The notes under the pieces were generated by a model. It was not told the DNA's origin and ran no database searches. It was given only the letters and a program-made list of their open reading frames with translations. 64,000 bases of DNA from Conexibacter sp. SYSU D00693 (GTDB lineage Bacteria; Actinomycetota; Thermoleophilia; Solirubrobacterales; Solirubrobacteraceae): contig NZ_CP070950.1 in assembly GCF_017084525.1 (NCBI RefSeq), forward strand, positions 3,100,001 to 3,164,000. The letters are read 5' to 3'. This document shows, piece after piece, positions 27,970-37,156 of the stretch; position 1 is the stretch's first letter; each line of letters starts with the position of its first letter. Made by a program: the position numbers and the translations under genes.

Positions 27970-28647
27970 TCAGTCCTCGACGAGGAAGTCGAAGACGGCG
28001 TAGGCGAGGAGCCCGAAGACCAGATCATAGAGGCCGAGGATCGCCAGCCAGCGCCCGGGCAGCGCGCCCGCGCCCGCGGCGTCGAAGACGGGCGCGAGGG
28101 CGCGCGCCGTCCCGATGACCACCGGGACGAGCAGCGGCAGCGCGATCAGCGGGACGAGCAGGTCCCGCGCGCGCGTCTGGATGCCCAGGGCGGCGACGAG
28201 CGTCCCGACCACGGCGATGCCCGCGTCGGCGAGCAGCAGGACGACGGCGGCGCGCCACAGCAGGCCGACGTCGAGCCCCGGCTCGAGGAGCAGGAGCGCG
28301 AAGACCGGCAGCGCGAAGAGCTCGAGCAGGACCAGGAAGCTGAAGAGCGCGGTGGCCTTGGCCACGAGCAGCGCGGTGCGGTCGACCGGCGCGAGGAGGA
28401 AGCCGTCGAAGCCGCCCTCCTCCTCGTCGGTGACGAACAGCCGGTTGATGCCGAGCATCGCCGCGAAGAGCAGCGTCACGACCAGCACGCCGGCGGCGAG
28501 CTGGCCCTCGACGGTGTCGCGGTCCAGCCCGAAGTGGAAGACGACGAACGTCGTGACGCTGAACAGCGCCATGCCGGTGAGCGTCGTGGGCGCGCGCAGC
28601 TCGAGGCGCAGCTCCTTGCGCAGCAGGGCGCCGACCGCGTGCCTCAT
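27970..28647 (-). CDS. ccmB: haem exporter permease CcmB
   Basis: A 225-residue membrane protein with six hydrophobic segments, the permease of the CcmAB(C) ABC complex. Family marks are the N-terminal LLRKELRLELR, the loop LFVTDEEEGGFDGFLLAPVDR with the conserved E-x-E-x-G/D-x-L-x-L-P-like pattern, and the C-terminal LVPLIALPLLVPVVIGTARA. ATG 28647 overlaps the ccmA stop as ATGA; the longer open frame is a shadow of ccmA. Confidence 0.92.
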   Translation of the reverse strand: MRHAVGALLRKELRLELRAPTTLTGMALFSVTTFVVFHFGLDRDTVEGQLAAGVLVVTLLFAAMLGINRLFVTDEEEGGFDGFLLAPVDRTALLVAKATALFSFLVLLELFALPVFALLLLEPGLDVGLLWRAAVVLLLADAGIAVVGTLVAALGIQTRARDLLVPLIALPLLVPVVIGTARALAPVFDAAGAGALPGRWLAILGLYDLVFGLLAYAVFDFLVED

Positions 28648-29330
28648 GCGTAGAGCTCCCGCACGCGCTCGACGTCGACCTCGTCGGCGCCGGCCAGCAG
28701 CTCCTGGCGCCCCCCGCGCAGGCCCAGCACGACGTCGGCCTCCGCCAGCCCGCCTGCGGGGTCGTGGCTCGTGACGATCCGGGTGCGGCCCGACGACCGA
28801 CCCACGAGCGGCTCGAGCGCCGCGGTGGCCGCCGGGTCGAGGTTCGCGGTCGGCTCGTCGAGCAGCACGACCGGCGGGTCGTGCAGGACGGCCCGGCAGG
28901 CGGCGGCGCGCTGGACCATCCCGCGCGAGTACGTCTCGATCGGGTCGTCGGCGCGCGGGCCGAGGCCCACCTGGTCGAGCAGGGCGTCGACGCGCTCGAA
29001 CGGCGCCCGGTGCAGCCGCGCGTGGAAGCGCAGGTTCTCGCGGGCGCTGAGGTCGCGGTACAGCAGCGGCGCGTGGCCGAGCAGGCCGATGCGCCCGCGC
29101 ACCGCCCACGAGCGCCTGGGCAGGTCCTCGCCGAGCACGCGCGCGACGCCCGCGTGCGGGCGCAGCAACGTCGCCAGCACGCGCAGGAGCGTCGTCTTGC
29201 CCGCGCCGTTGGGCCCGAAGACGACGAGCGTCTGCCCGGGCTCCAGGGTGAGCGTCAGCCCGGCGAGCGCCTCGCGGTCCCCGTAGCGGCGGACGAGCCC
29301 GTCGAGCTCAAGCGCCGGGGTGCCGGCCAT
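28644..29330 (-). CDS. ccmA: haem exporter ATP-binding protein CcmA
   Basis: A 228-residue ABC ATPase. Walker A is GPNGAGKTT, the Q-loop region contains LLGHAPLLYRDLSARENL (typical of CcmA), the signature is YSRGMVQRAA, and Walker B is VVLLDEPTANLD with the H-loop in VTSHDP. It powers release of haem-CcmE by the CcmABCD complex. The start overlaps the end of moaB by 23 bases. No ccmE, ccmF or ccmH is seen in the window. Confidence 0.93.
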   Translation of the reverse strand: MAGTPALELDGLVRRYGDREALAGLTLTLEPGQTLVVFGPNGAGKTTLLRVLATLLRPHAGVARVLGEDLPRRSWAVRGRIGLLGHAPLLYRDLSARENLRFHARLHRAPFERVDALLDQVGLGPRADDPIETYSRGMVQRAAACRAVLHDPPVVLLDEPTANLDPAATAALEPLVGRSSGRTRIVTSHDPAGGLAEADVVLGLRGGRQELLAGADEVDVERVRELYA

Positions 29331-29808
29331 GGTCGCCGCGGCCGCGGATCGTGCCGACGGCGTGGCCGAGCACGGGGGCGAGGATCGGGAACAGCTGGTC
29401 GAGCGCCTTCGGGTTGCCCGGGAGGTTGACGACGAGCGTGCGGCCCGCCACGCCCGCGACCCCGCGGCTCAGGACGCCCATCGGCGTGTGCTGCAGCGAC
29501 GCGGCGCGGAAGGCCTCCTGGATGCCCGGGACCTCGCGCTCGACGACGTCGGCGGTGGCCTCGGGCGTGACGTCGTCGGGGGTCAGCCCGGTGCCGCCGG
29601 TCGTGAGGACGACGTCGAGCCCCTCGCTCACCCACGAGGCGATCCGGGCGCTGATCGCGGCGCGGTCGTCGCGGACGACGTCGGTCGCCGCGACCTCGCA
29701 GCCGGCGTCGCGCGCGAGCTCGGCCAGCCGCGGGCCGCCGCCGTCCTGCGCGTCGCCGCGGGCGACCGTCGTCGAGACCGTCAGGACGGCCGTGCGCGGG
29801 GCGCTCAC
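29308..29808 (-). CDS. moaB: molybdopterin adenylyltransferase MoaB/MogA
   Basis: A 166-residue MoCF_biosynth-domain protein that adenylylates molybdopterin before metal insertion. The signature is VVLTTGGTGLTPDDVTPEA, with the substrate-binding LSRGVAGVAGRTLVVNLPGNPKA near the end. The start is GTG at 29808. It heads the haem-export operon physically, overlapping ccmA by 23 bases, although its pathway partner moaC lies 1.4 kb upstream, beyond the glycosyltransferase gene. Confidence 0.92.
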   Translation of the reverse strand: MSAPRTAVLTVSTTVARGDAQDGGGPRLAELARDAGCEVAATDVVRDDRAAISARIASWVSEGLDVVLTTGGTGLTPDDVTPEATADVVEREVPGIQEAFRAASLQHTPMGVLSRGVAGVAGRTLVVNLPGNPKALDQLFPILAPVLGHAVGTIRGRGDHGRHPGA

Positions 29809-29818
29809 CCCGCGAGTC

Positions 29819-31138
29819 CTACCACGCCGAAGCGGTGGCTCCCCGCGTGAAGCGCTGGTCGCGGGCCTCGGCCGAGGGGCCGGGACCGGTGCGGGTGGCC
29901 ATCGCGCTGAGCAGGGAGTACGACGCGGGGCCGAGGTCCGGGACGGGCGGGGCGGGGAGCGCCAGCGGGACCTGCGCGATCGCCGTCAGGCCGTGCAGGC
30001 GGCAGACGTCGACGAGCGTCGTGAGGTCGACGGCGTCGTCGTTGGGCAGCGCGAGCTCTGCAAGGACGTCGCGGCGGATCGCCCAGGCAGGAGCCAGCGG
30101 CGAGGCGACGGCGGCCAGGTCCGGGGCGTGGACGCGCAGCAGCGGGCGGGCGACCGGCTCGTCGAGCGGGTGGGGCATCGGCGGGACGGCCTTGACGAGC
30201 ACGAGGCGCGGGTCGGCCTGGAGCGGCGCGGCGAGGACCTCCGCGGCGGCCGCCGGGTCCGGGCAGTCGTCGGGCAGGACGACGACCACGTCGGCGCCGC
30301 CGGTGCGCGCGTCGGCGAGCGCCTCGCGCAGCGCGCGGCCGCGGCTGCCGCGGGCGGCACGCAGCACGAGCGGCGGCGCGGCGGGGATGGTGGGCGCGGC
30401 GGTGTCGTCCGCGGCCGGCTGGGCCTCGTCGGCGGGGTCGAGCAGCCGCAGCGGACCGCGGCTCAGGCGGGCACCGTCGTGCGCGACGGTGCGCACGCGG
30501 GCGGCGCGCGAGTAGGCGACGCGGATGCCGGCGGCGTGCAGCGCGCGCTCCAGGGCCTCGTCCTCGCCCTCCGGGACCGCGGCCAGCCCACCGACGGCGT
30601 CGTAGGCCGCGCCGGTCAGCGCGAACGACGCGCCCGTGAACTGGTGGTGCTCGGCGTCCGGCGCGGCTTCGCGGACCGCGAGCAGGCGGCGGCGGGCGTC
30701 GGCGCTGCGCGCGGCCCGGAGCGCGGTCGGGACGGCCGCCGCGTCGCTCTCGGGCAGCTCGACCATGCCGGCCACCGCGCCCGCGCCGCCGCGCACGGCG
30801 GCGAGCTGGGCGGCGATCCAGTCGTGGGCCACGACGCTGTCCGCGTCGGTCGAGCACAGCAACCGCGGGTCCCGGCTGCGGGCGACGAGCATCCCGGCGC
30901 GCCGGGCCAGCCCCGGGCCGCGGCCTGGGCCATCGACGACGGTGACGGGCAGCCACGGGTGCGCCTGGCGCGCGGCCTCGACGGCCTCGGCCGTCCGGTC
31001 GCGGCACCGGTCGAGGACGACGACGACCTCCACGTCCCCCGGATGGACCCCGGCCTGGACGGCCAGCGCGGCGATGCACGCGCCGATCCGGTCTTCCTCG
31101 TCCCGGGCAGGGACGACCACGACGGCCTGGGGCTTCAC
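29819..31138 (-). CDS. two-part glycosyltransferase (GT2 domain plus degenerate GpgS-like domain)
   Basis: A 439-residue protein. Residues 1-225 are a GT-A family 2 domain: VVVVPARDEEDRIGACIAAL, VVVVLDRCRDRT, GPGRGPGLARRAGM, and the metal-binding STDADSVVAHDW. Residues about 250-405 resemble the second half of glucosyl-3-phosphoglycerate synthase: GSRGRALREAL, ADVVVVLPDDCPDP, LVLVKAV, VARPLLRVHAPDLAAV and GLTAIAQVPLAL. In this half the usual DxD and the VEIGLLID segment are not preserved, so it is probably non-catalytic. The sugar donor and acceptor are unknown. The start is GTG at 31138; moaB begins 10 bases downstream of its stop. Confidence 0.78.
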   Translation of the reverse strand: MKPQAVVVVPARDEEDRIGACIAALAVQAGVHPGDVEVVVVLDRCRDRTAEAVEAARQAHPWLPVTVVDGPGRGPGLARRAGMLVARSRDPRLLCSTDADSVVAHDWIAAQLAAVRGGAGAVAGMVELPESDAAAVPTALRAARSADARRRLLAVREAAPDAEHHQFTGASFALTGAAYDAVGGLAAVPEGEDEALERALHAAGIRVAYSRAARVRTVAHDGARLSRGPLRLLDPADEAQPAADDTAAPTIPAAPPLVLRAARGSRGRALREALADARTGGADVVVVLPDDCPDPAAAAEVLAAPLQADPRLVLVKAVPPMPHPLDEPVARPLLRVHAPDLAAVASPLAPAWAIRRDVLAELALPNDDAVDLTTLVDVCRLHGLTAIAQVPLALPAPPVPDLGPASYSLLSAMATRTGPGPSAEARDQRFTRGATASAW

Positions 31139-31152
31139 GGCGCTTCCCTACC

Positions 31153-31180
31153 CGGACGGACGGCACTCCATGTCCGTCCG
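31153..31180. other. inverted repeat CGGACGGAC / GTCCGTCCG
   Basis: Perfect 9-bp arms (31153-31161 and 31172-31180) separated by ten bases, in the 83-base gap between moaC and the glycosyltransferase gene. It could terminate moaC transcripts or serve as an operator for the glycosyltransferase-moaB-ccm-hem run. No T-run is present. Confidence 0.5.
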
Positions 31181-31221
31181 TGTCCGAACCAGGGCGCCGG
31201 CGGTGGCTTCCTGACCCGTGG

Positions 31222-31704
31222 TCAGTCGTCGCGGCGCCAGCTGCCCGAGCGCCCGCCCGTCTTCTCGACGAGCTCGACCGCCTCGACCACGACGCCCTTC
31301 TCGAGGCCCTTGACCATGTCGTAGACCGTGAGGGCGGCCACCGCGGCGGCGGTCATCGCCTCCATCTCGACGCCGGTGCGGGCGGTGACGGCGGCGGTCG
31401 CGACGAGCGTGACGGTCCCGGCCGGCGCGTCGACGGTCCCCTCGACGTCGCAGTGGTCGAGGCCGACGGGGTGGCAGAGGGGGATGAGCTCGCCGGTGCG
31501 CTTGGCCGCCTGGATGCCGGCGATGCGCGCGACGCCGAGGACGTCGCCCTTCGGGGCGTCGCCCGCGGCGACGGCGGCGGCGGTCTCGGGCGACATCCGC
31601 ACGACGGCGCGGGCCACCGCGCGCCGGGCGGTCTGCGGCTTGGCGCCGACGTCGACCATCCGGGCGGCGCCCTGGTCGTCGAGGTGCGTCAGCCGGCCGG
31701 CCAT
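31222..31704 (-). CDS. moaC: cyclic pyranopterin monophosphate synthase
   Basis: A 160-residue MoaC, which rearranges the MoaA product into cyclic pyranopterin monophosphate in molybdenum cofactor synthesis. Motifs: MVDVGAKPQTARRAVARA, KGDVLGVARIAGIQAAKRT, LIPLCHPVGLDHC, GVEMEAMTAAAVAALTVYDMVKG. The last contains the catalytic Asp, and its Lys is in the following KGLEKG segment. Length matches the family. It is ten bases downstream of the sirohaem synthase gene and so probably cotranscribed with it. Confidence 0.96.
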   Translation of the reverse strand: MAGRLTHLDDQGAARMVDVGAKPQTARRAVARAVVRMSPETAAAVAAGDAPKGDVLGVARIAGIQAAKRTGELIPLCHPVGLDHCDVEGTVDAPAGTVTLVATAAVTARTGVEMEAMTAAAVAALTVYDMVKGLEKGVVVEAVELVEKTGGRSGSWRRDD

Positions 31705-31714
31705 GTGGTGGGGG

Positions 31715-32458
31715 CTACGCCGCGGCGGGCGCGTGGCGCGCCTGCGCCTCGGTGATGAGCTCGCGCACGGCGGTCGTGTCGCCGGAGCGCAGGAGCTCGA
31801 TCGGGTCCGGATGGCCGTTGACGATGGCCTCGAAGAACGCCTTGCGGTCCTGGTAGGTCGGCAGCGTGCCCTTCGCCCAGCCGCGGACCTCGTTGAGCAT
31901 GACGGCGAGCGTCGCGTACTCGTCGCCGAAGAGCGAGGCGATCTCGCGCTTCATGCGCTTGGCCAGCGCGGGCGACGCGCCGGCGGTGGAGATCGCGATG
32001 GCCAGCGGGCCGGTGCGCACGATCGCCGGGAGGATGAAGTTGCACAGCGGCGGGACGTCGACGACGTTGACGAGCATCGCCCGCCGCTCGGCGTCCTCGT
32101 AGATCCCGATGTTGATGTCGGTGTCGTCGGTGCAGGCGATCACCATGAACGTGCCCTCGAGGTCCGACGGCTGGTACTCGCGCTGGTGCCAGACGACCGA
32201 GCCCTCCTGCGCCAGCTCCTCGAGCTCGGGCCCGACCTCGGGCGCCACGACGACCACGTCGCCCTCGCACGCCAGCAGGCCCTCGACCTTCTCCAGGCCG
32301 ATCTCGCCGCCGCCGACCACCAGGCACTTGCGGCCCCGCAGCTTCAGGCACGCGACGTAGAACGGCGTGTCGAGCATGTCGCGGACGCACGTCTGGTCGC
32401 AGGTCCCGCGGCGGAACTGGCAGACGCACTCCTTCCCCGAGTAGGCAGCAGCAGGCAT
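31715..32458 (-). CDS. precorrin-2 dehydrogenase / sirohydrochlorin ferrochelatase-type sirohaem synthase
   Basis: A 247-residue protein with the CysG N-terminal (Met8p-like) fold that oxidises precorrin-2 with NAD and may insert iron to make sirohaem. The Rossmann motif is [58 protein letters not shown] is conserved (given here in part as NFILPAIV and [12 protein letters not shown]). The N-terminus is unusual: C11, C13, C20 and C24 precede the Rossmann fold, a possible metal or Fe-S site absent from classic CysG/Met8p. The methyltransferase half is missing because cobA is fused to hemD at 23376. ATG 32458 has a TACCCT box nine bases upstream. Confidence 0.88.
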
Positions 32459-32467
32459 CGCTGACGA

Positions 32468-32473
32468 AGGGTA
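32468..32473 (-). promoter_or_regulatory. TACCCT -10 box for the sirohaem synthase gene
   Basis: On the minus strand TACCCT lies nine bases before the ATG at 32458, with no ribosome-binding site between. The divergent MpaB-type gene has its own TACCCT at 32496-32501. Confidence 0.45.
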
Positions 32474-32519
32474 GTCCCCCCGGGTCGCTCGGCCGTACCC
32501 TCGGTGCAACCCAGGCGCG

Positions 32520-33332
32520 ATGGCCTCGTACTTCGACGACACCTCCATGCTGCGGCGCGTCCATCGCGAGCAGGCCGTGGCCCTCGGCGGCCCGCGGGCG
32601 CTGCTGATGATGGCCGCCCACCCCGTCGCCTTCGAGGGCTTCTTCATGTCGACGGGCGCCCTCGGCGACCCGTACGCCCGCCTCCAGCGCACCGCGAACG
32701 TCCTGGGCGCCATCGCCTGGCGCGACCGCGCGGAGGCCGACCGCCTCACGCGACGCGTGCGCTCCATGCACGGCAAGGTCCGTGGCGAGCTCCACGAGCC
32801 CGCGGGCCCGTTCCCCGCCGGGACGACGTACGCGGCCGACGACCCCGGCCTCCTGCTGTGGATCCTCGCCTGCCTCGTCGACTCGAGCCTGCTGGCCTAC
32901 GAGCGCTACGTCCGCGGCCTGGAGGAGGACGAGCGCGACGCCTACTGGGCCGACTACCGCCTCGTCGGCCGGCTCTTCGGGATCCCGGACGAGGCGATGC
33001 CGGGCGACTGGGCGGGCATTCGCGCGTACATGGACGAGCGCCTGGGCTCCGACGAGCTCGTCGTGACCCCCAAGGCCCGCGAGCTGGGCATCGACATCGT
33101 CATGCGCCCGCCGGTCCCGCTCGCCGCGCGTCCCCTCGTCGAGACGGTCAACCAGATCACCATCGGCCTGCTGCCCTCCCGGGTGCGCAAGGGCTATGGC
33201 CTCCGGTGGGACCCGGTCCGCGGGCTGGCGGTGCGTGGCGGGCAGGAGTACGCGCGGCGGGTGCTGGTGCCGCTGCTGCCCGAGCGGTGGCGGCTCGTGC
33301 CGAGCGCGCGGGCGCTGCGGGCGGCGGCGTAG
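32520..33332 (+). CDS. oxygenase MpaB family protein (DUF2236)
   Basis: A 270-residue, mostly helical protein of the ER-bound oxygenase MpaB / latex-clearing protein-like family. Conserved pieces are [43 protein letters not shown] and [28 protein letters not shown], which supply the His residues proposed to bind haem b. Bacterial members are haem-dependent oxygenases of unknown substrate. The ATG at 32520 follows a TACCCT box by 18 bases. It is monocistronic, and a palindromic repeat begins five bases after its stop. Confidence 0.85.
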
Positions 33333-33337
33333 GCGAC

Positions 33338-33364
33338 GGTGGAAGGTGCCAGGCACTTTCCACC
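33338..33364. repeat. GTGCC-N-GGCAC palindromic repeat, copy 3
   Basis: GGTGGAAGGTGCC (33338-33350), central A, and GGCACTTTCCACC (33352-33364) form 13-bp arms with one mismatch. It directly follows the MpaB-type gene and could double as a terminator. Confidence 0.8.
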
Positions 33365-33394
33365 CGACGGGCGAGGCGATGGAGTTCGGCGCGG

Positions 33395-33610
33395 TGCGTC
33401 CGCTGGATGTGGAGCGCTCGCTGTTGGGCACTGAGGGAGGGAGGGCCAGGCCGCCCGGCGGTCGGAGGGGCGGTTCTGGGGTCCGGCCACACCGGCGGGA
33501 GCGGTCGGTCCGTGAGCCTGTCGCTTCCGGCGCTGTAGGGGGCCCAACTGCAGGGTGACGAGCAGTCAGCCGCGCGGGCCCCCATGGCGGTGTGGTGCGA
33601 CCACCCGTCG
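33395..33610. repeat. non-coding repeat element, copy A
   Basis: Within the 442-base gene-free block 33333-33774, this segment resembles 55705-55850. Shared blocks include GCACTG, then CCCG-CGGTCGGAGGG-CG with GGGGTCCGGC, then CTGCAG, and at the end TGGCGGTG-GGTG-GACCAC. A strong stem, GGGGGCCC/GGGCCCCC (33538-33545, 33576-33583), encloses a smaller ACTGC/GCAGT pair. No convincing reading frame is present. It may be a non-autonomous mobile element or a structured RNA. Confidence 0.5.
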
Positions 33611-33709
33611 AACCCCCAAGACCGCCCGAACCTCGCCCAGGACGGCCCGGAGGCCCGGCGGCCGCCTCGCGCACGACGCGGCCGCCGGCCGGTTGCCCTC
33701 CCTCAGTGC
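33428..33709. repeat. 14-bp perfect inverted repeat bounding the non-coding block
   Basis: GCACTGAGGGAGGG at 33428-33441 is exactly repeated in inverse orientation at 33696-33709. Flanking bases outside the arms (TCGCTGT on both copies) also agree, suggesting two inverted copies of one unit rather than a simple hairpin. Apart from repeats I see nothing in 33333-33774. Confidence 0.6.
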
Positions 33710-33774
33710 GAGACAGCGACGGCTTCGCACCCGGCGAACGCGCCGAACGGCGCGCCACCACGAACCGCCAACGC

Positions 33775-35385
33775 CTACCGCCGGGTCCGCGCCGGACTCC
33801 GCAACGCCCGCCCCACCCGCACCGCGATCCGGCCCAGCGGCACGGTCCCGTCCCGCAGCGCCCGCTCGCGATCGGCATCGCGCGCCGAGCGCAGCCGCGC
33901 GATGGCCCGCCCCGAGTCGGCGAGCGCGCCGTCGTAGGGGAACCACCAGAACGGCCGCCCCCGCGGCGGGTCCCAGGTCGTCACCTTCGGCTCGGCGCAC
34001 GTGCGCAGGGCGATCGCGCCGCGGGCGCGCCCGAGGCCCGAGCCGCCGATGCCGCCCCACGGCAGCTGCGGTGCCGAGCGTGACACGAGGTGCTGGTTCA
34101 TCCAGACCATGCCGACGCGCAGCTCGCGGGCGATGCGGGCGCCCTTGTAGCGGTCGGCGGTCCAGACGGAGGCGCCGAGGCCGAGGGCGCTCTCGTTGAC
34201 CGCCGCGATGGCGGCCTCCTCGTCGTCGACGACGCTCACGACGACGACGGGGCCTGGTGCCTCCTCGCGCAGGATCCGCGCCCCGGGCGGGACGCGGCTG
34301 AGGACGGCCGGGGCGCAGAAGGCACCAGACAGGCCCTCGACCTCGACGGGCCCGCCGCAGTGGAGGGTGGCACCCGCGGCGACCGCGTCGTCGAGGAGCT
34401 CGCGGACGCGGTCACGGCGGTCGTGGGTGACGAGCGGCCCGATCTCGGTGTCGGCGTCGCGGGGGTCACCGAGCCGGCGCGCCACGGCCTGGGCGACGAG
34501 CCCCTGGACGACTGCGTCGCCGACCTCGCGCACCGCCAGCACGCGCTTGACCGACCCGCCGGACTGGCCGGCGTTGGCGAAGGCGCCCCAGGCGATGCCC
34601 TCGATCGCGCGGGCGACGTTCGCGTCCGCGCAGACCAGCGCCGCGTCCTTGCCGCCCATCTCCAGCACCGCGCGCTTGACCCCCTGGGCGCAGCGCTCGA
34701 GCACGCCACGGCCGGCCCGCAGCGAGCCGGTGAAGCGCACCTGGTCGACGGCGCCGTCGACGAGCGCCTGGCCCGCGTCGGCGTGGCCGTGGACGACCGC
34801 GAGCAGGCCCTCCGGCAGCCCGGCGCGGGCGAAGACGCGGGCGACGCGCTCGCCCGACAGCGCCCCGTGCGGGGACGGCTTCAGGACGACGCCGTTGCCG
34901 GCCATGAGCGCGACGGCCACGTCGCCCAGCGGTGTCGCGAACGGCTCGGTCGCCGCGCCGATCACGCCGACGACGCCCAGCGGCTCGTAGCGCCAGCGCG
35001 CCCGCGTGAGCGGATGCAGCACCCGGGAGAGCGCGACGCGCTCGCCCGACAGGATCTTCGGGCCGTTCTGGGCCAGCCACTGGAGCGTCTCGATCGTCGG
35101 CAGCAGCTCGTGGAGCTCGGCCTCCGCCCGCGGGCGACCCTGCTCGCGGGAGACGAGGGCGACGACCTCCTCGCTCTCGTCGATCACGGCCTGCGCCGCG
35201 CGCGCCATGTACCGGGCGCGGTCGGCGAGGCGCAGCTGCGCCCAGAGGCGCTGGACCTCGCGGGCCTCGGCGATCGCGGCGTGCACGTCGGCGGCCGACG
35301 CGACGGGCACGGAGCCCAGCACGTCGCCGGTGGCAGGCGCGTAGGCCTCGAGGGTGCTGCGGACGGCGGCGTCGGTGCCGGGCAT
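33775..35385 (-). CDS. aldehyde dehydrogenase-family protein lacking the catalytic cysteine
   Basis: A 536-residue ALDH-superfamily protein. The NAD-binding domain is intact: PLGVVGVIGAATEPFATPL, GNGVVLKPSPHGAL, DQVRFTGSLRAGRG, and the general-base Glu242 in LEMGGKDAAL. At the nucleophile motif, usually GQxC, it reads F-A-N-A-G-Q-S-G276, so Cys is replaced by Gly (codon at 34558-34560). The Lys and Asn contacts near the end (MVWMNQHLVS) and PWGGIGGSGLGRARG are present. Without the Cys, normal aldehyde oxidation is unlikely; it may be a non-catalytic or altered-function member. ATG 35385 has a TAGGCT box 11 bases upstream. The C-terminus has an extra ~50 basic residues. Confidence 0.88.
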   Translation of the reverse strand: MPGTDAAVRSTLEAYAPATGDVLGSVPVASAADVHAAIAEAREVQRLWAQLRLADRARYMARAAQAVIDESEEVVALVSREQGRPRAEAELHELLPTIETLQWLAQNGPKILSGERVALSRVLHPLTRARWRYEPLGVVGVIGAATEPFATPLGDVAVALMAGNGVVLKPSPHGALSGERVARVFARAGLPEGLLAVVHGHADAGQALVDGAVDQVRFTGSLRAGRGVLERCAQGVKRAVLEMGGKDAALVCADANVARAIEGIAWGAFANAGQSGGSVKRVLAVREVGDAVVQGLVAQAVARRLGDPRDADTEIGPLVTHDRRDRVRELLDDAVAAGATLHCGGPVEVEGLSGAFCAPAVLSRVPPGARILREEAPGPVVVVSVVDDEEAAIAAVNESALGLGASVWTADRYKGARIARELRVGMVWMNQHLVSRSAPQLPWGGIGGSGLGRARGAIALRTCAEPKVTTWDPPRGRPFWWFPYDGALADSGRAIARLRSARDADRERALRDGTVPLGRIAVRVGRALRSPARTRR

Positions 35386-35399
35386 GCCGGCGGCCGAGC

Positions 35400-35750
35400 C
35401 TACGCCACGTCTCGGGGGCGCGTCCCGGCGCGCTCGGCGACGGCCGCATCGAGCACGTCGTGCAGGCCGGGCGCGAGCCCACCGTCGACGAGGAGGACGT
35501 CCGGGACGCCGGCGTCCAGGTCGCCGGCGGCGTAGCCCACGACCTGGTGGCGGCCCTCGAGCCACGCCGTCGCGCAGACCGCGACCCGAGCGTGGGGCGC
35601 GACGCGGACGAGCCGATGCGCCTCGAGGTCGTCGACCGGGCGCCCGCAGCGCGACGCCAGCGCGCGCAGCGCCGGGGCGTCGGTCCCGTGGGCCAGGCGC
35701 AGGCGGACGCGCAGGCCGTTGGGGAGGGTGTGGGCGTGGCCGAGGAGCAT
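35400..35750 (-). CDS. short GNAT-like protein, 116 aa
   Basis: A 116-residue product whose first half (LPNGLRVRLRLAHGTDAPALRALASR) looks like the opening strand and helix of a GNAT acetyltransferase. The acetyl-CoA loop (Q/RxxGxG/A) is not evident, so it may be a half-domain or degenerate member. The ATG at 35750 comes four bases after a perfect GCGGACC-N2-GGTCCGT palindrome, which puts its expression under the same regulator as the yceI operon. It ends 14 bases before the aldehyde dehydrogenase-like gene, so the two may be cotranscribed. Confidence 0.6.
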   Translation of the reverse strand: MLLGHAHTLPNGLRVRLRLAHGTDAPALRALASRCGRPVDDLEAHRLVRVAPHARVAVCATAWLEGRHQVVGYAAGDLDAGVPDVLLVDGGLAPGLHDVLDAAVAERAGTRPRDVA

Positions 35751-35754
35751 GGGT

Positions 35755-35770
35755 GCGGACCGAGGTCCGT
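35755..35770. promoter_or_regulatory. GCGGACC-GA-GGTCCGT operator
   Basis: Seven-base arms about a two-base centre, identical in design to the paired sites upstream of yceI. It ends four bases before the start codon of the short GNAT-like gene, so a bound dimer would block transcription or initiation. Confidence 0.6.
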
Positions 35771-35783
35771 CTTCGAGGGTGCT

Positions 35784-35801
35784 GGGTGCGGTCCTGCACC
35801 C
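35784..35801. other. hairpin GGGTGC-N6-GCACCC
   Basis: A perfect 6-bp stem with a six-base loop in the 125-base gap between rarA and the short GNAT-like gene, both on the minus strand. It may terminate rarA transcripts; no T-run follows. Confidence 0.4.
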
Positions 35802-35875
35802 TGTTGAACGGCTGTGAACGCCGCAGGTCGCGCGCTGGGGCGCTGATCGCGGACGGATGTCGTGATGGACGCCGG

Positions 35876-37156
35876 TCAACCCCGTCCGCGCCGCCGCTCG
35901 ACCTCCCGCTGGCGCTCGGCGAGCCACCGCTCGGCCTCTCCCGGCTGCCAGAACCGCGTCCCGGCGACGCGCGAGGGCAGCAGCTCCTGCGGCGAGACGC
36001 CCTCCGGGCGGTCGTGCGGGTAGTCGTAGGCCTCGTCGCCGGTGGGCGTGTTGCGCAGGTAGCCCGGGGCGGGCGCCGCGCCCTGGTCGCGCACGAGTGC
36101 GCGGGCGCGGCCGAGCGCGACGTACGCGGCGTTCGACTTCGGCGCGAGCGCCAGGTACACGGCGCACTGCGCCAGCGCGTGCGCGCACTCCGGCATCCCG
36201 ACGTGCTCGACCGCCGCGGCCGCCGACGTGGCGACGACGAGGGCCTGCGGGTCGGCGTTGCCGATGTCCTCGGAGGCGAGGATGACCATGCGCCGGACGA
36301 TGAAGCGCGGGTCCTCGCCGCCCTCGAGCATGACCGCGAGGTAGTAGAGCGACGCGTCGACGTCGCTGCCGCGCGTCGCCTTGATCCACGAGCTCGCCAG
36401 GTCGTAGTGCTGGTCGCCCGCCTTGTCGTAGCGGACTGCCGCGCGCTGCAGCGCGTCCTCGGCGGTCTCGAGCGTCACCGGCCCGCGTGACGCCGCGACC
36501 TCGAGCGCGCCGAGCGCCGTCCGCGCGTCGCCGGCCGACCGTCGCGCGAGGAAGTCCAGCGCCTCCTCGTCGGCGCGCGCGCCGAGCTCGGCGATGCCGC
36601 GGCCCAGCAGCTCGCGGACCTCCTCGGGCTCGAGCGGCTGCAGCTCGACGACCGGCGCGCGGCTGAGCAGCGCGCTGTTGACCTCGAAGCGCGGGTTCTC
36701 CGTCGTCGCGCCGACGAGGGTGACGAGGCCCTCCTCGACCGCCGGCAGCAGCGCGTCCTGCTGGGCCTTGTTGAACCGGTGGATCTCGTCGAGGAAGAGC
36801 ACGGTGCGCCGCCCGGCGCGCCGGCGCTCCTGCGCACGCTCGAGCACCGCCACGACCTCGGCCTTGCCCGCGCGCACCGCGCTGAGCTCCTCGAACGCCG
36901 CGTCGGCATGGCGCGCCACGAGCCGCGCGATCGTCGTCTTGCCCGACCCCGGTGGCCCGTGCAGGACCATCGACGTCGGCCGGCCCTGCTCGAGCGCGCT
37001 GGCCAGCGCGGTCCCCTCCCCCAGGACGTGGCGCTGGCCGACGACGTCCTCCAGGCGCTGCGGGCGCAGCCGCGCGGCGAGCGGCGCGTCGGGCGGCGGC
37101 GCCTCGGCGTGCGGGCGCTCGGGCTCGGGCTCGGCGTCGAAGAGGCGACCCTCCAT
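35876..37156 (-). CDS. rarA: replication-associated recombination protein A (AAA+ ATPase)
   Basis: A 426-residue AAA+ ATPase of the RarA/MgsA/WRNIP1 family, acting at stalled replication forks with SSB. It has LAARLRPQRLEDVVGQRHVLG, Walker A HGPPGSGKTT, Walker B LFLDEIHRFNKAQQDALLP, sensor 1 LVGATTENPRFEVNSALLSR, and the C-terminal MgsA tetramerisation domain with IKATRGSDVDASLYYLAVMLEGGEDPRFI (here in part) and YLRNTP. Length is typical (about 430-450). ATG 37156; the gene is followed by the chrA gene upstream on the same strand, 19 bases apart. Confidence 0.95.
   Translation of the reverse strand: MEGRLFDAEPEPERPHAEAPPPDAPLAARLRPQRLEDVVGQRHVLGEGTALASALEQGRPTSMVLHGPPGSGKTTIARLVARHADAAFEELSAVRAGKAEVVAVLERAQERRRAGRRTVLFLDEIHRFNKAQQDALLPAVEEGLVTLVGATTENPRFEVNSALLSRAPVVELQPLEPEEVRELLGRGIAELGARADEEALDFLARRSAGDARTALGALEVAASRGPVTLETAEDALQRAAVRYDKAGDQHYDLASSWIKATRGSDVDASLYYLAVMLEGGEDPRFIVRRMVILASEDIGNADPQALVVATSAAAAVEHVGMPECAHALAQCAVYLALAPKSNAAYVALGRARALVRDQGAAPAPGYLRNTPTGDEAYDYPHDRPEGVSPQELLPSRVAGTRFWQPGEAERWLAERQREVERRRGRG

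What the first reader, a model, noticed from the sequence alone, without database searches (positions are those of the whole stretch)
33775..35385. Aldehyde dehydrogenase with Gly in place of the catalytic Cys
The nucleophile motif GQxC reads GQSG (Gly276, codon 34558-34560) while the cofactor site and the general-base Glu are kept. The frame is otherwise intact and full length, so this is not simple decay. It may be a non-catalytic scaffold, or act on a substrate without a thioester step. It also has an extra basic C-terminal stretch and sits behind an operator-controlled GNAT-like gene.
Basis: partly seen in the sequence, partly recalled or inferred. Interest (0 to 1): 0.65.

Follow-up and report, generated by a model that had tools for sequence, protein, structure and literature searches.

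The report
Dead aldehyde dehydrogenase kept by selection
In one family of soil bacteria (Solirubrobacterales) an aldehyde-detoxifying enzyme lost its whole catalytic centre long ago, yet the gene stayed in place and selection still preserves the protein, mainly at its helices and tail, so it probably now works as a binding or assembly part, not as an enzyme.

Summary
In detail: an intact 536-aa aldehyde dehydrogenase (ALDH) homologue on the minus strand has Gly276 (GGC) where the catalytic Cys belongs. It is neither a base-call error nor unique. All 40 full-length orthologues of one clade, from 13 genera of the window's family, lack the Cys (23 Gly, 14 Arg, 2 Pro, 1 Gln). The next-nearest orthologues, in the same genomic slot, keep it.

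The cofactor and catalytic sites are therefore only partly kept.

The gene is a single-copy positional orthologue in a conserved cluster (rarA–ALDH–cysG–moaC–mog–ccm). Catalysis was lost in place. The copies stay full length, with purifying dN/dS like that of the active clade. Constraint moved from the Rossmann and catalytic domains to the N-terminal helices, oligomerisation hairpin and C-terminal tail. Core charge rose from about −17 to −1.

Best reading: a clade-specific pseudo-ALDH with a non-catalytic binding or assembly role. Its partner is unknown. Repeated gene loss in sister genera shows it is dispensable there. Pseudo-ALDHs are known (ALDH16; GRM1 microcompartment AldDH), so this is a new variant of a known kind.

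The parts
33775..35385 (-). Cys-less pseudo-ALDH gene (536 aa plus stop)
   Evidence: Open frame, Pfam PF00171 410 bits; AF2 model pLDDT 86, PDB ALDHs at Z about 49
34558..34560 (-). Gly276, at the place of catalytic Cys302 (human ALDH2 numbering)
   Evidence: Gly/Arg/Pro/Gln in 40/40 of the clade, Cys in 33/33 intact orthologues
34945..34953 (-). Ala145-Thr146-Glu147, replacing Trp168-Asn169-Tyr/Phe170 (oxyanion-hole Asn lost)
   Evidence: Alignment, 0/40 of the clade keep Trp or Asn, 33/33 intact keep both
34255..34257 (-). Pro377, replacing Phe401 that packs on the nicotinamide
   Evidence: 0/40 of the clade keep Phe, 33/33 intact keep it
34660..34662 (-). Glu242, general base (Glu268), kept here and in 35/40 of the clade
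34879..34881 (-). Lys169 (Lys192, adenosine ribose), kept here and in 30/40
35047..35298 (-). N-terminal helices (residues 30-113), more constrained in the Cys-less clade
   Evidence: Relative site rate 0.93 against 1.20 in intact orthologues
33778..33969 (-). C-terminal tail (residues 473-536), with the clade signature RSxRxxDR
   Evidence: Relative site rate 1.18 against 1.52 (residues 473-525); tail present in both groups
35400..35750 (-). Shortened GNAT-fold gene (116 aa) between rarA and the pseudo-ALDH, acetyl-CoA loop missing
   Evidence: No Pfam hit; AF2 model resembles GNATs weakly; full-length GNAT with QGQGIG loop at the same place in family f2
35876..37156 (-). rarA/mgsA (AAA+ ATPase), conserved upstream neighbour
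   Evidence: Pfam MgsA_C; homologues in 65/75 orthologous loci
32520..33332 (+). MpaB/rubber-oxygenase-like gene, convergent, in part of the loci
   Evidence: Pfam MPAB_Lcp_cat 185 bits; homologues in 21 loci, with Cys-less and a few intact orthologues
31715..32413 (-). Precorrin-2 dehydrogenase (CysG N-terminal type), conserved downstream neighbour
   Evidence: Pfam; homologues in 56 loci
31222..31704 (-). moaC, conserved downstream neighbour
   Evidence: Pfam
28644..29808 (-). Molybdopterin-binding (Mog-like) gene and a ccmA-like ABC ATPase, conserved downstream
   Evidence: Pfam

Best explanation
A pseudoenzyme. A single-copy ALDH, in a fixed rarA-cysG gene slot of Solirubrobacterales, lost its catalytic Cys, oxyanion Asn/Trp and nicotinamide Phe together at the base of one clade of the window's family. 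The protein keeps the ALDH fold but should have no Cys-dependent dehydrogenase or esterase chemistry (lost residues shown; inactivity inferred). It is kept for a non-catalytic job, inferred to be binding or assembly through the N-terminal helices, oligomerisation hairpin and C-terminal Arg-rich tail, where constraint increased (shown). The shift from an acidic to a near-neutral core suggests an anionic partner (inferred). That partner might be linked to RarA, since the gene is often translationally coupled to rarA, but this is a guess. In several sister genera the gene was deleted or wore down, so the job is accessory.
For: Clade-wide loss of C302, N169, W168 and F401 in 40/40 against 0/33. 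One clade, SH-aLRT 100, on a tree built without the trait columns; fewest changes 1 for N169, and 2 for C302, the second being a lone Cys-to-Ser in L122. Same syntenic slot in both groups, so true orthologues. Purifying selection: dN/dS 0.09-0.42 against 0.14-0.33 in intact pairs; 157 near-invariant sites in sub-clade A against 152 in intact. Constraint shift: N-helices, hairpin and tail about 0.77x, Rossmann and catalytic 1.14-1.17x, Mann-Whitney p 6e-8. Core charge -0.9 against -17.1, while RarA and CysG from the same loci do not differ. Fold kept. No replacement Cys: C232 and C343 are equally conserved in intact orthologues.
Against: No partner is identified and nothing was measured. The gene is absent in several genera and badly worn in two, so it is not essential and erosion continues in places. 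Site tests treat sites as independent. dS uses a simple model at about 94% GC3. The charge shift rests on one ancestral event.
Confidence: 0.72

Rival explanations
1. Slow decay: the enzyme became dispensable, catalytic residues went first, and the gene is on its way out without a new role.
For: Clean loss between rarA and cysG in several genera; worn but open relics in L195 and L200; overall within-group identity is lower than in intact orthologues (0.577 against 0.639).
Against: 40 full-length open copies at 43-76% identity; dN/dS well below 1; N-terminal helices and tail more, not less, conserved; new residues fixed clade-wide, such as R84, R323, G277 and S500.
Confidence: 0.15
2. New catalytic chemistry without the Cys: the rebuilt pocket (Glu147, Ser278, Pro377 in sub-clade A) binds or turns over a new substrate.
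For: Glu147 and Ser278 are fixed in 25/25 of sub-clade A; the general-base Glu is kept in 35/40 and Lys192 in 30/40.
Against: Sub-clade B has Ala at 147 and Arg or Gln at 276, so there is no shared new site; catalytic-domain sites run faster, not slower, than in intact orthologues; Glu268 is lost in genus g3.
Confidence: 0.1
3. Regulatory or structural partner in a hetero-oligomer with one of the genome's active ALDHs, through the conserved oligomerisation hairpin (a special case of the best explanation).
For: The hairpin is slower-evolving in the clade (0.76x); ten other ALDH-like matches exist in the genome, the best 37-41% identical.
Against: No closely related active paralogue exists; no test of pairing was possible.
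Confidence: 0.15
4. Base-call error or an isolated mutant.
Against: Independent assemblies from 13 genera share the loss, and three further active-site residues changed too.
Confidence: 0.01

Closest known systems
ALDH16 (human ALDH16A1) pseudoenzyme
   Same: ALDH homologue without the catalytic residues, proposed to act as a binding protein (PMC10650815, PMC8160307)
   Different: ALDH16 is a longer protein of animals and some bacteria (own knowledge); here a 536-aa single-domain bacterial orthologue that lost catalysis in place in a rarA-cysG slot, with other residues changed
Second AldDH of GRM1 bacterial microcompartment loci
   Same: Bacterial ALDH with the catalytic Cys replaced (Ser or Pro), suggested scaffold or regulator (PMC4207490)
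   Different: That one sits beside an active AldDH in a microcompartment locus; here there is no microcompartment gene and no active sister copy at the locus
Cys-intact Solirubrobacterales orthologues (e.g. L113, L134)
   Same: Same gene slot, 45-53% identity, same C-terminal tail
   Different: Keep PWNYP, GQTCSG and EEIFGP; acidic core
Succinic semialdehyde dehydrogenase (NCBIfam PRK09407)
   Same: Best NCBIfam match, 335 bits
   Different: Below the curated cut-off of 521 bits, and without the catalytic Cys

Membership tests
ALDH superfamily (PF00171), by descent and fold | Sequence and fold homology over the full domain | tested here: met
   Pfam 410 bits, residues 10-467; VIA Z about 49, rmsd 1.6-2.2 A to solved ALDHs
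Catalytic ALDH | Nucleophilic Cys302 | tested here: not met
   Gly276; 0/40 in the clade
Catalytic ALDH | Oxyanion-hole Asn169 | tested here: not met
   Thr146; 0/40 in the clade
Catalytic ALDH | General base Glu268 | tested here: met
   Glu242; 35/40 in the clade
Catalytic ALDH | NAD(P) binding | tested here: inconclusive
   Lys192, Glu399 and FTGS kept in the window protein, Trp168 and Phe401 lost; binding itself not testable here
ALDH16 pseudoenzyme family | Missing catalytic residues | tested here: met
   (Cys and Asn missing; the general-base Glu is kept)
ALDH16 pseudoenzyme family | Long protein with a second ALDH-like region (own knowledge) | tested here: not met
   536 aa, one Aldedh stretch
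GRM1 microcompartment pseudo-AldDH | Lies in a microcompartment locus with a second, active AldDH | tested here: not met
   Neighbours are rarA, cysG, moaC, mog and ccm genes
Succinic semialdehyde dehydrogenase PRK09407 | Curated score cut-off of 521 bits | tested here: not met
   335 bits

The most novel reading that the evidence does not exclude
The dead ALDH has become an accessory of the replication-recombination ATPase RarA: co-translated with it, with an acidic-to-neutral surface and clade-fixed arginines for contact with nucleic acid or an acidic partner. That would be a metabolic enzyme turned DNA-maintenance factor.
Probability: 0.08. Interest if true: 0.8.

Novelty: new variant of a known kind. 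Interest (0 to 1): 0.5.

Why it matters
Pseudoenzymes are usually found as extra copies beside an active one. Here an orthologue that is single-copy at its locus lost catalysis in place, at one branch, with active sister orthologues, worn relics and clean deletions all sampled in the same gene slot. That gives a graded natural series for asking what keeps a dead enzyme under selection. It also warns that annotation by family name (such as 'succinate-semialdehyde dehydrogenase') is wrong for a whole clade.

Tried and rejected
Sequencing error: rejected, the change is clade-wide. Migrated Cys: C232 and C343 are as conserved in intact orthologues, and the Cys at position 275 is present in only 7/40. 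The special basic tail: shared with intact orthologues. A pseudogene with stops: none in the 40 coding regions; stops listed by the search lie at or past the C-terminus, where the alignment ran on. Papers on Cys-less bacterial ALDH clades: only ALDH16 and GRM1 found. A search for RarA together with ALDH gave nothing relevant. Operator upstream: only imperfect repeats (D1 35741-35794; I3 35776-35802) at the start of the GNAT-like gene, in 77% GC DNA; judged unremarkable without a shuffle test, not pursued. Mapping the new arginines on the model surface was not possible, because no coordinates are given.

Full report
OBSERVATION. The gene is an uninterrupted 536-codon frame on the minus strand, 35385 to 33775. 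It matches PF00171 with 410 bits over residues 10-467. The catalytic loop reads NAGQSGGSVKRV, and codon 276 (34558-34560) is GGC, Gly. The AF2 model (21-row alignment) has mean pLDDT 86 and superposes on solved ALDHs with Z about 49 and rmsd 1.6-2.2 A, so the fold is kept.

RELATIVES. Searches of the family (146 genomes), class (199), order (232) and phylum (296) found orthologues at 41-76% identity; wide flanks were fetched. In the alignment every orthologue of one clade, 40 full-length rows from 13 genera, lacks the Cys: 23 Gly, 14 Arg, 2 Pro, 1 Gln. All 33 aligned orthologues with a Cys keep the usual WN[YF]P, GQxC and E-x-F-G-P motifs. Phylum-wide nearest hits (L167-L174) are also intact.

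MORE THAN THE CYS. In all 40 the oxyanion Asn169 and Trp168 are replaced (mostly by Ala, Ser, Thr or Gly) and Phe401 is Pro, Asp or other. Glu268 is kept in 35, Lys192 in 30 and Glu399 in 13. Roles of Cys302, Glu268, Lys192, Glu399 and Phe401 are taken from PMC8160307; those of Asn169 and Trp168 from general knowledge of the family. Two sub-clades rebuilt the pocket differently. A (25 rows, with the window): GQ[SAC][GP]GS, E-P-[FLW] and PGP. B (15 rows): mostly GQARGS, SAPF and D-G-P. They share no new nucleophile; the two conserved Cys, 232 and 343, are as conserved in intact orthologues.

ONE EVENT, IN PLACE. On a maximum-likelihood tree built without the trait columns the 40 form one clade (SH-aLRT 100, branch 0.37), beside the intact group. 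The fewest changes are one for Asn169 and two for Cys302; the second is a lone Cys-to-Ser in L122. Gene order M20-rarA-ALDH-cysG(N)-moaC-mog-ccmABC is shared by intact and Cys-less loci. Only one copy per genome passes E 1e-90. This is therefore an orthologue that lost catalysis where it stands, not an extra paralogue.

SELECTION. Pairwise dN/dS (Nei-Gojobori) is 0.09-0.42 among Cys-less pairs and 0.14-0.33 among intact pairs; dS is rough at about 94% GC3. Sites at least 95% conserved number 157 in sub-clade A and 152 in the intact group. Normalised site rates show a shift. N-terminal helices: 0.93 in Cys-less against 1.20 in intact. Hairpin: 1.13 against 1.48. Tail: 1.18 against 1.52. These are slower. 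Rossmann: 0.73 against 0.64. Catalytic: 1.14 against 0.97. These are faster. Mann-Whitney p is 6e-8 for helices plus tail against Rossmann plus catalytic. New residues are fixed nearly clade-wide: R84, R323, G277, and S500 and R506 in the tail motif RSxRxxDR. The core's net charge is -0.9 against -17.1, while RarA and CysG of the same loci do not differ. Arg content is 9.1% against 6.2-6.6% in intact orthologues of f1 and f2, at similar GC3.

LOSS AND WEAR. In several genera of the family the slot is intact but the gene is gone (L192, L194, L196, L197, L198, L201). Two loci (L195, L200) hold open but badly worn relics without FTGS, LELGGK or the catalytic motif; they keep parts of the N-terminal helices and tail. 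The protein is therefore dispensable in some lineages, and slow decay remains a rival (0.15).

COUPLING TO rarA. The gap from rarA stop to ALDH start is 45 nt or less (often -4, -1 or 10) in 25 of 36 Cys-less loci and 5 of 25 intact loci (Fisher p 2e-4, not corrected for relatedness). In the window itself the GNAT-like gene intervenes. This, with the charge shift, is the only lead to a partner, and it is weak.

NEIGHBOUR. The 'GNAT-like' gene (35400-35750) has no Pfam hit. Its model matches GNATs weakly (best E 1.6e-3). In family f2 the gene at this place is a full GNAT with the QGQGIG / QAQGVG loop; in f1 it is about 113-125 aa and the loop is gone, also beside intact ALDHs (g20, g25). So a second enzyme next door eroded too, and probably earlier.

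MECHANISM. Shown: loss of the catalytic residues, predicted fold retained, retained selection, constraint moved to helices, hairpin and tail. Inferred: no dehydrogenase or esterase turnover; a binding or assembly role; an anionic or acidic partner. Unknown: the partner and the phenotype.

KNOWN KINDS. Pseudo-ALDHs exist: ALDH16A1 (PMC10650815, PMC8160307) and the second AldDH of GRM1 microcompartment loci with Cys to Ser or Pro (PMC4207490). Their defining context is not met here. No paper on this clade was found in the held library, which is not exhaustive. Verdict: new variant of a known kind, interest 0.5.

Noticed in passing
window 35400-35750 (minus strand): The small gene between rarA and the pseudo-ALDH is a shortened GNAT that lost the acetyl-CoA loop; family f2 has a full GNAT at this place. 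It probably eroded before the ALDH did, since genera g20 and g25 have the short form beside an intact ALDH.
   Followed up: partly
L192, L194, L196, L197, L198, L201: Clean absence of the ALDH between rarA and cysG in several genera of the same family (repeated gene loss).
   Followed up: partly
L195:9268-10284, L200:7660-9057: Highly worn but open ALDH-derived frames (423 aa and about 510 aa) in the same slot, with all catalytic motifs gone.
   Followed up: partly
L122 (GQSSSG): An independent Cys-to-Ser replacement in genus g25, outside the Cys-less clade and with PWNYP partly changed (SQFNYP).
   Followed up: no
window 28644-37156: Order-wide conserved cluster rarA-ALDH-cysG(N)-moaC-mog-ccmABC; an MpaB/rubber-oxygenase-like gene (32520-33332, + strand) is inserted convergently in many but not all loci.
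   Followed up: partly
   Followed up: no
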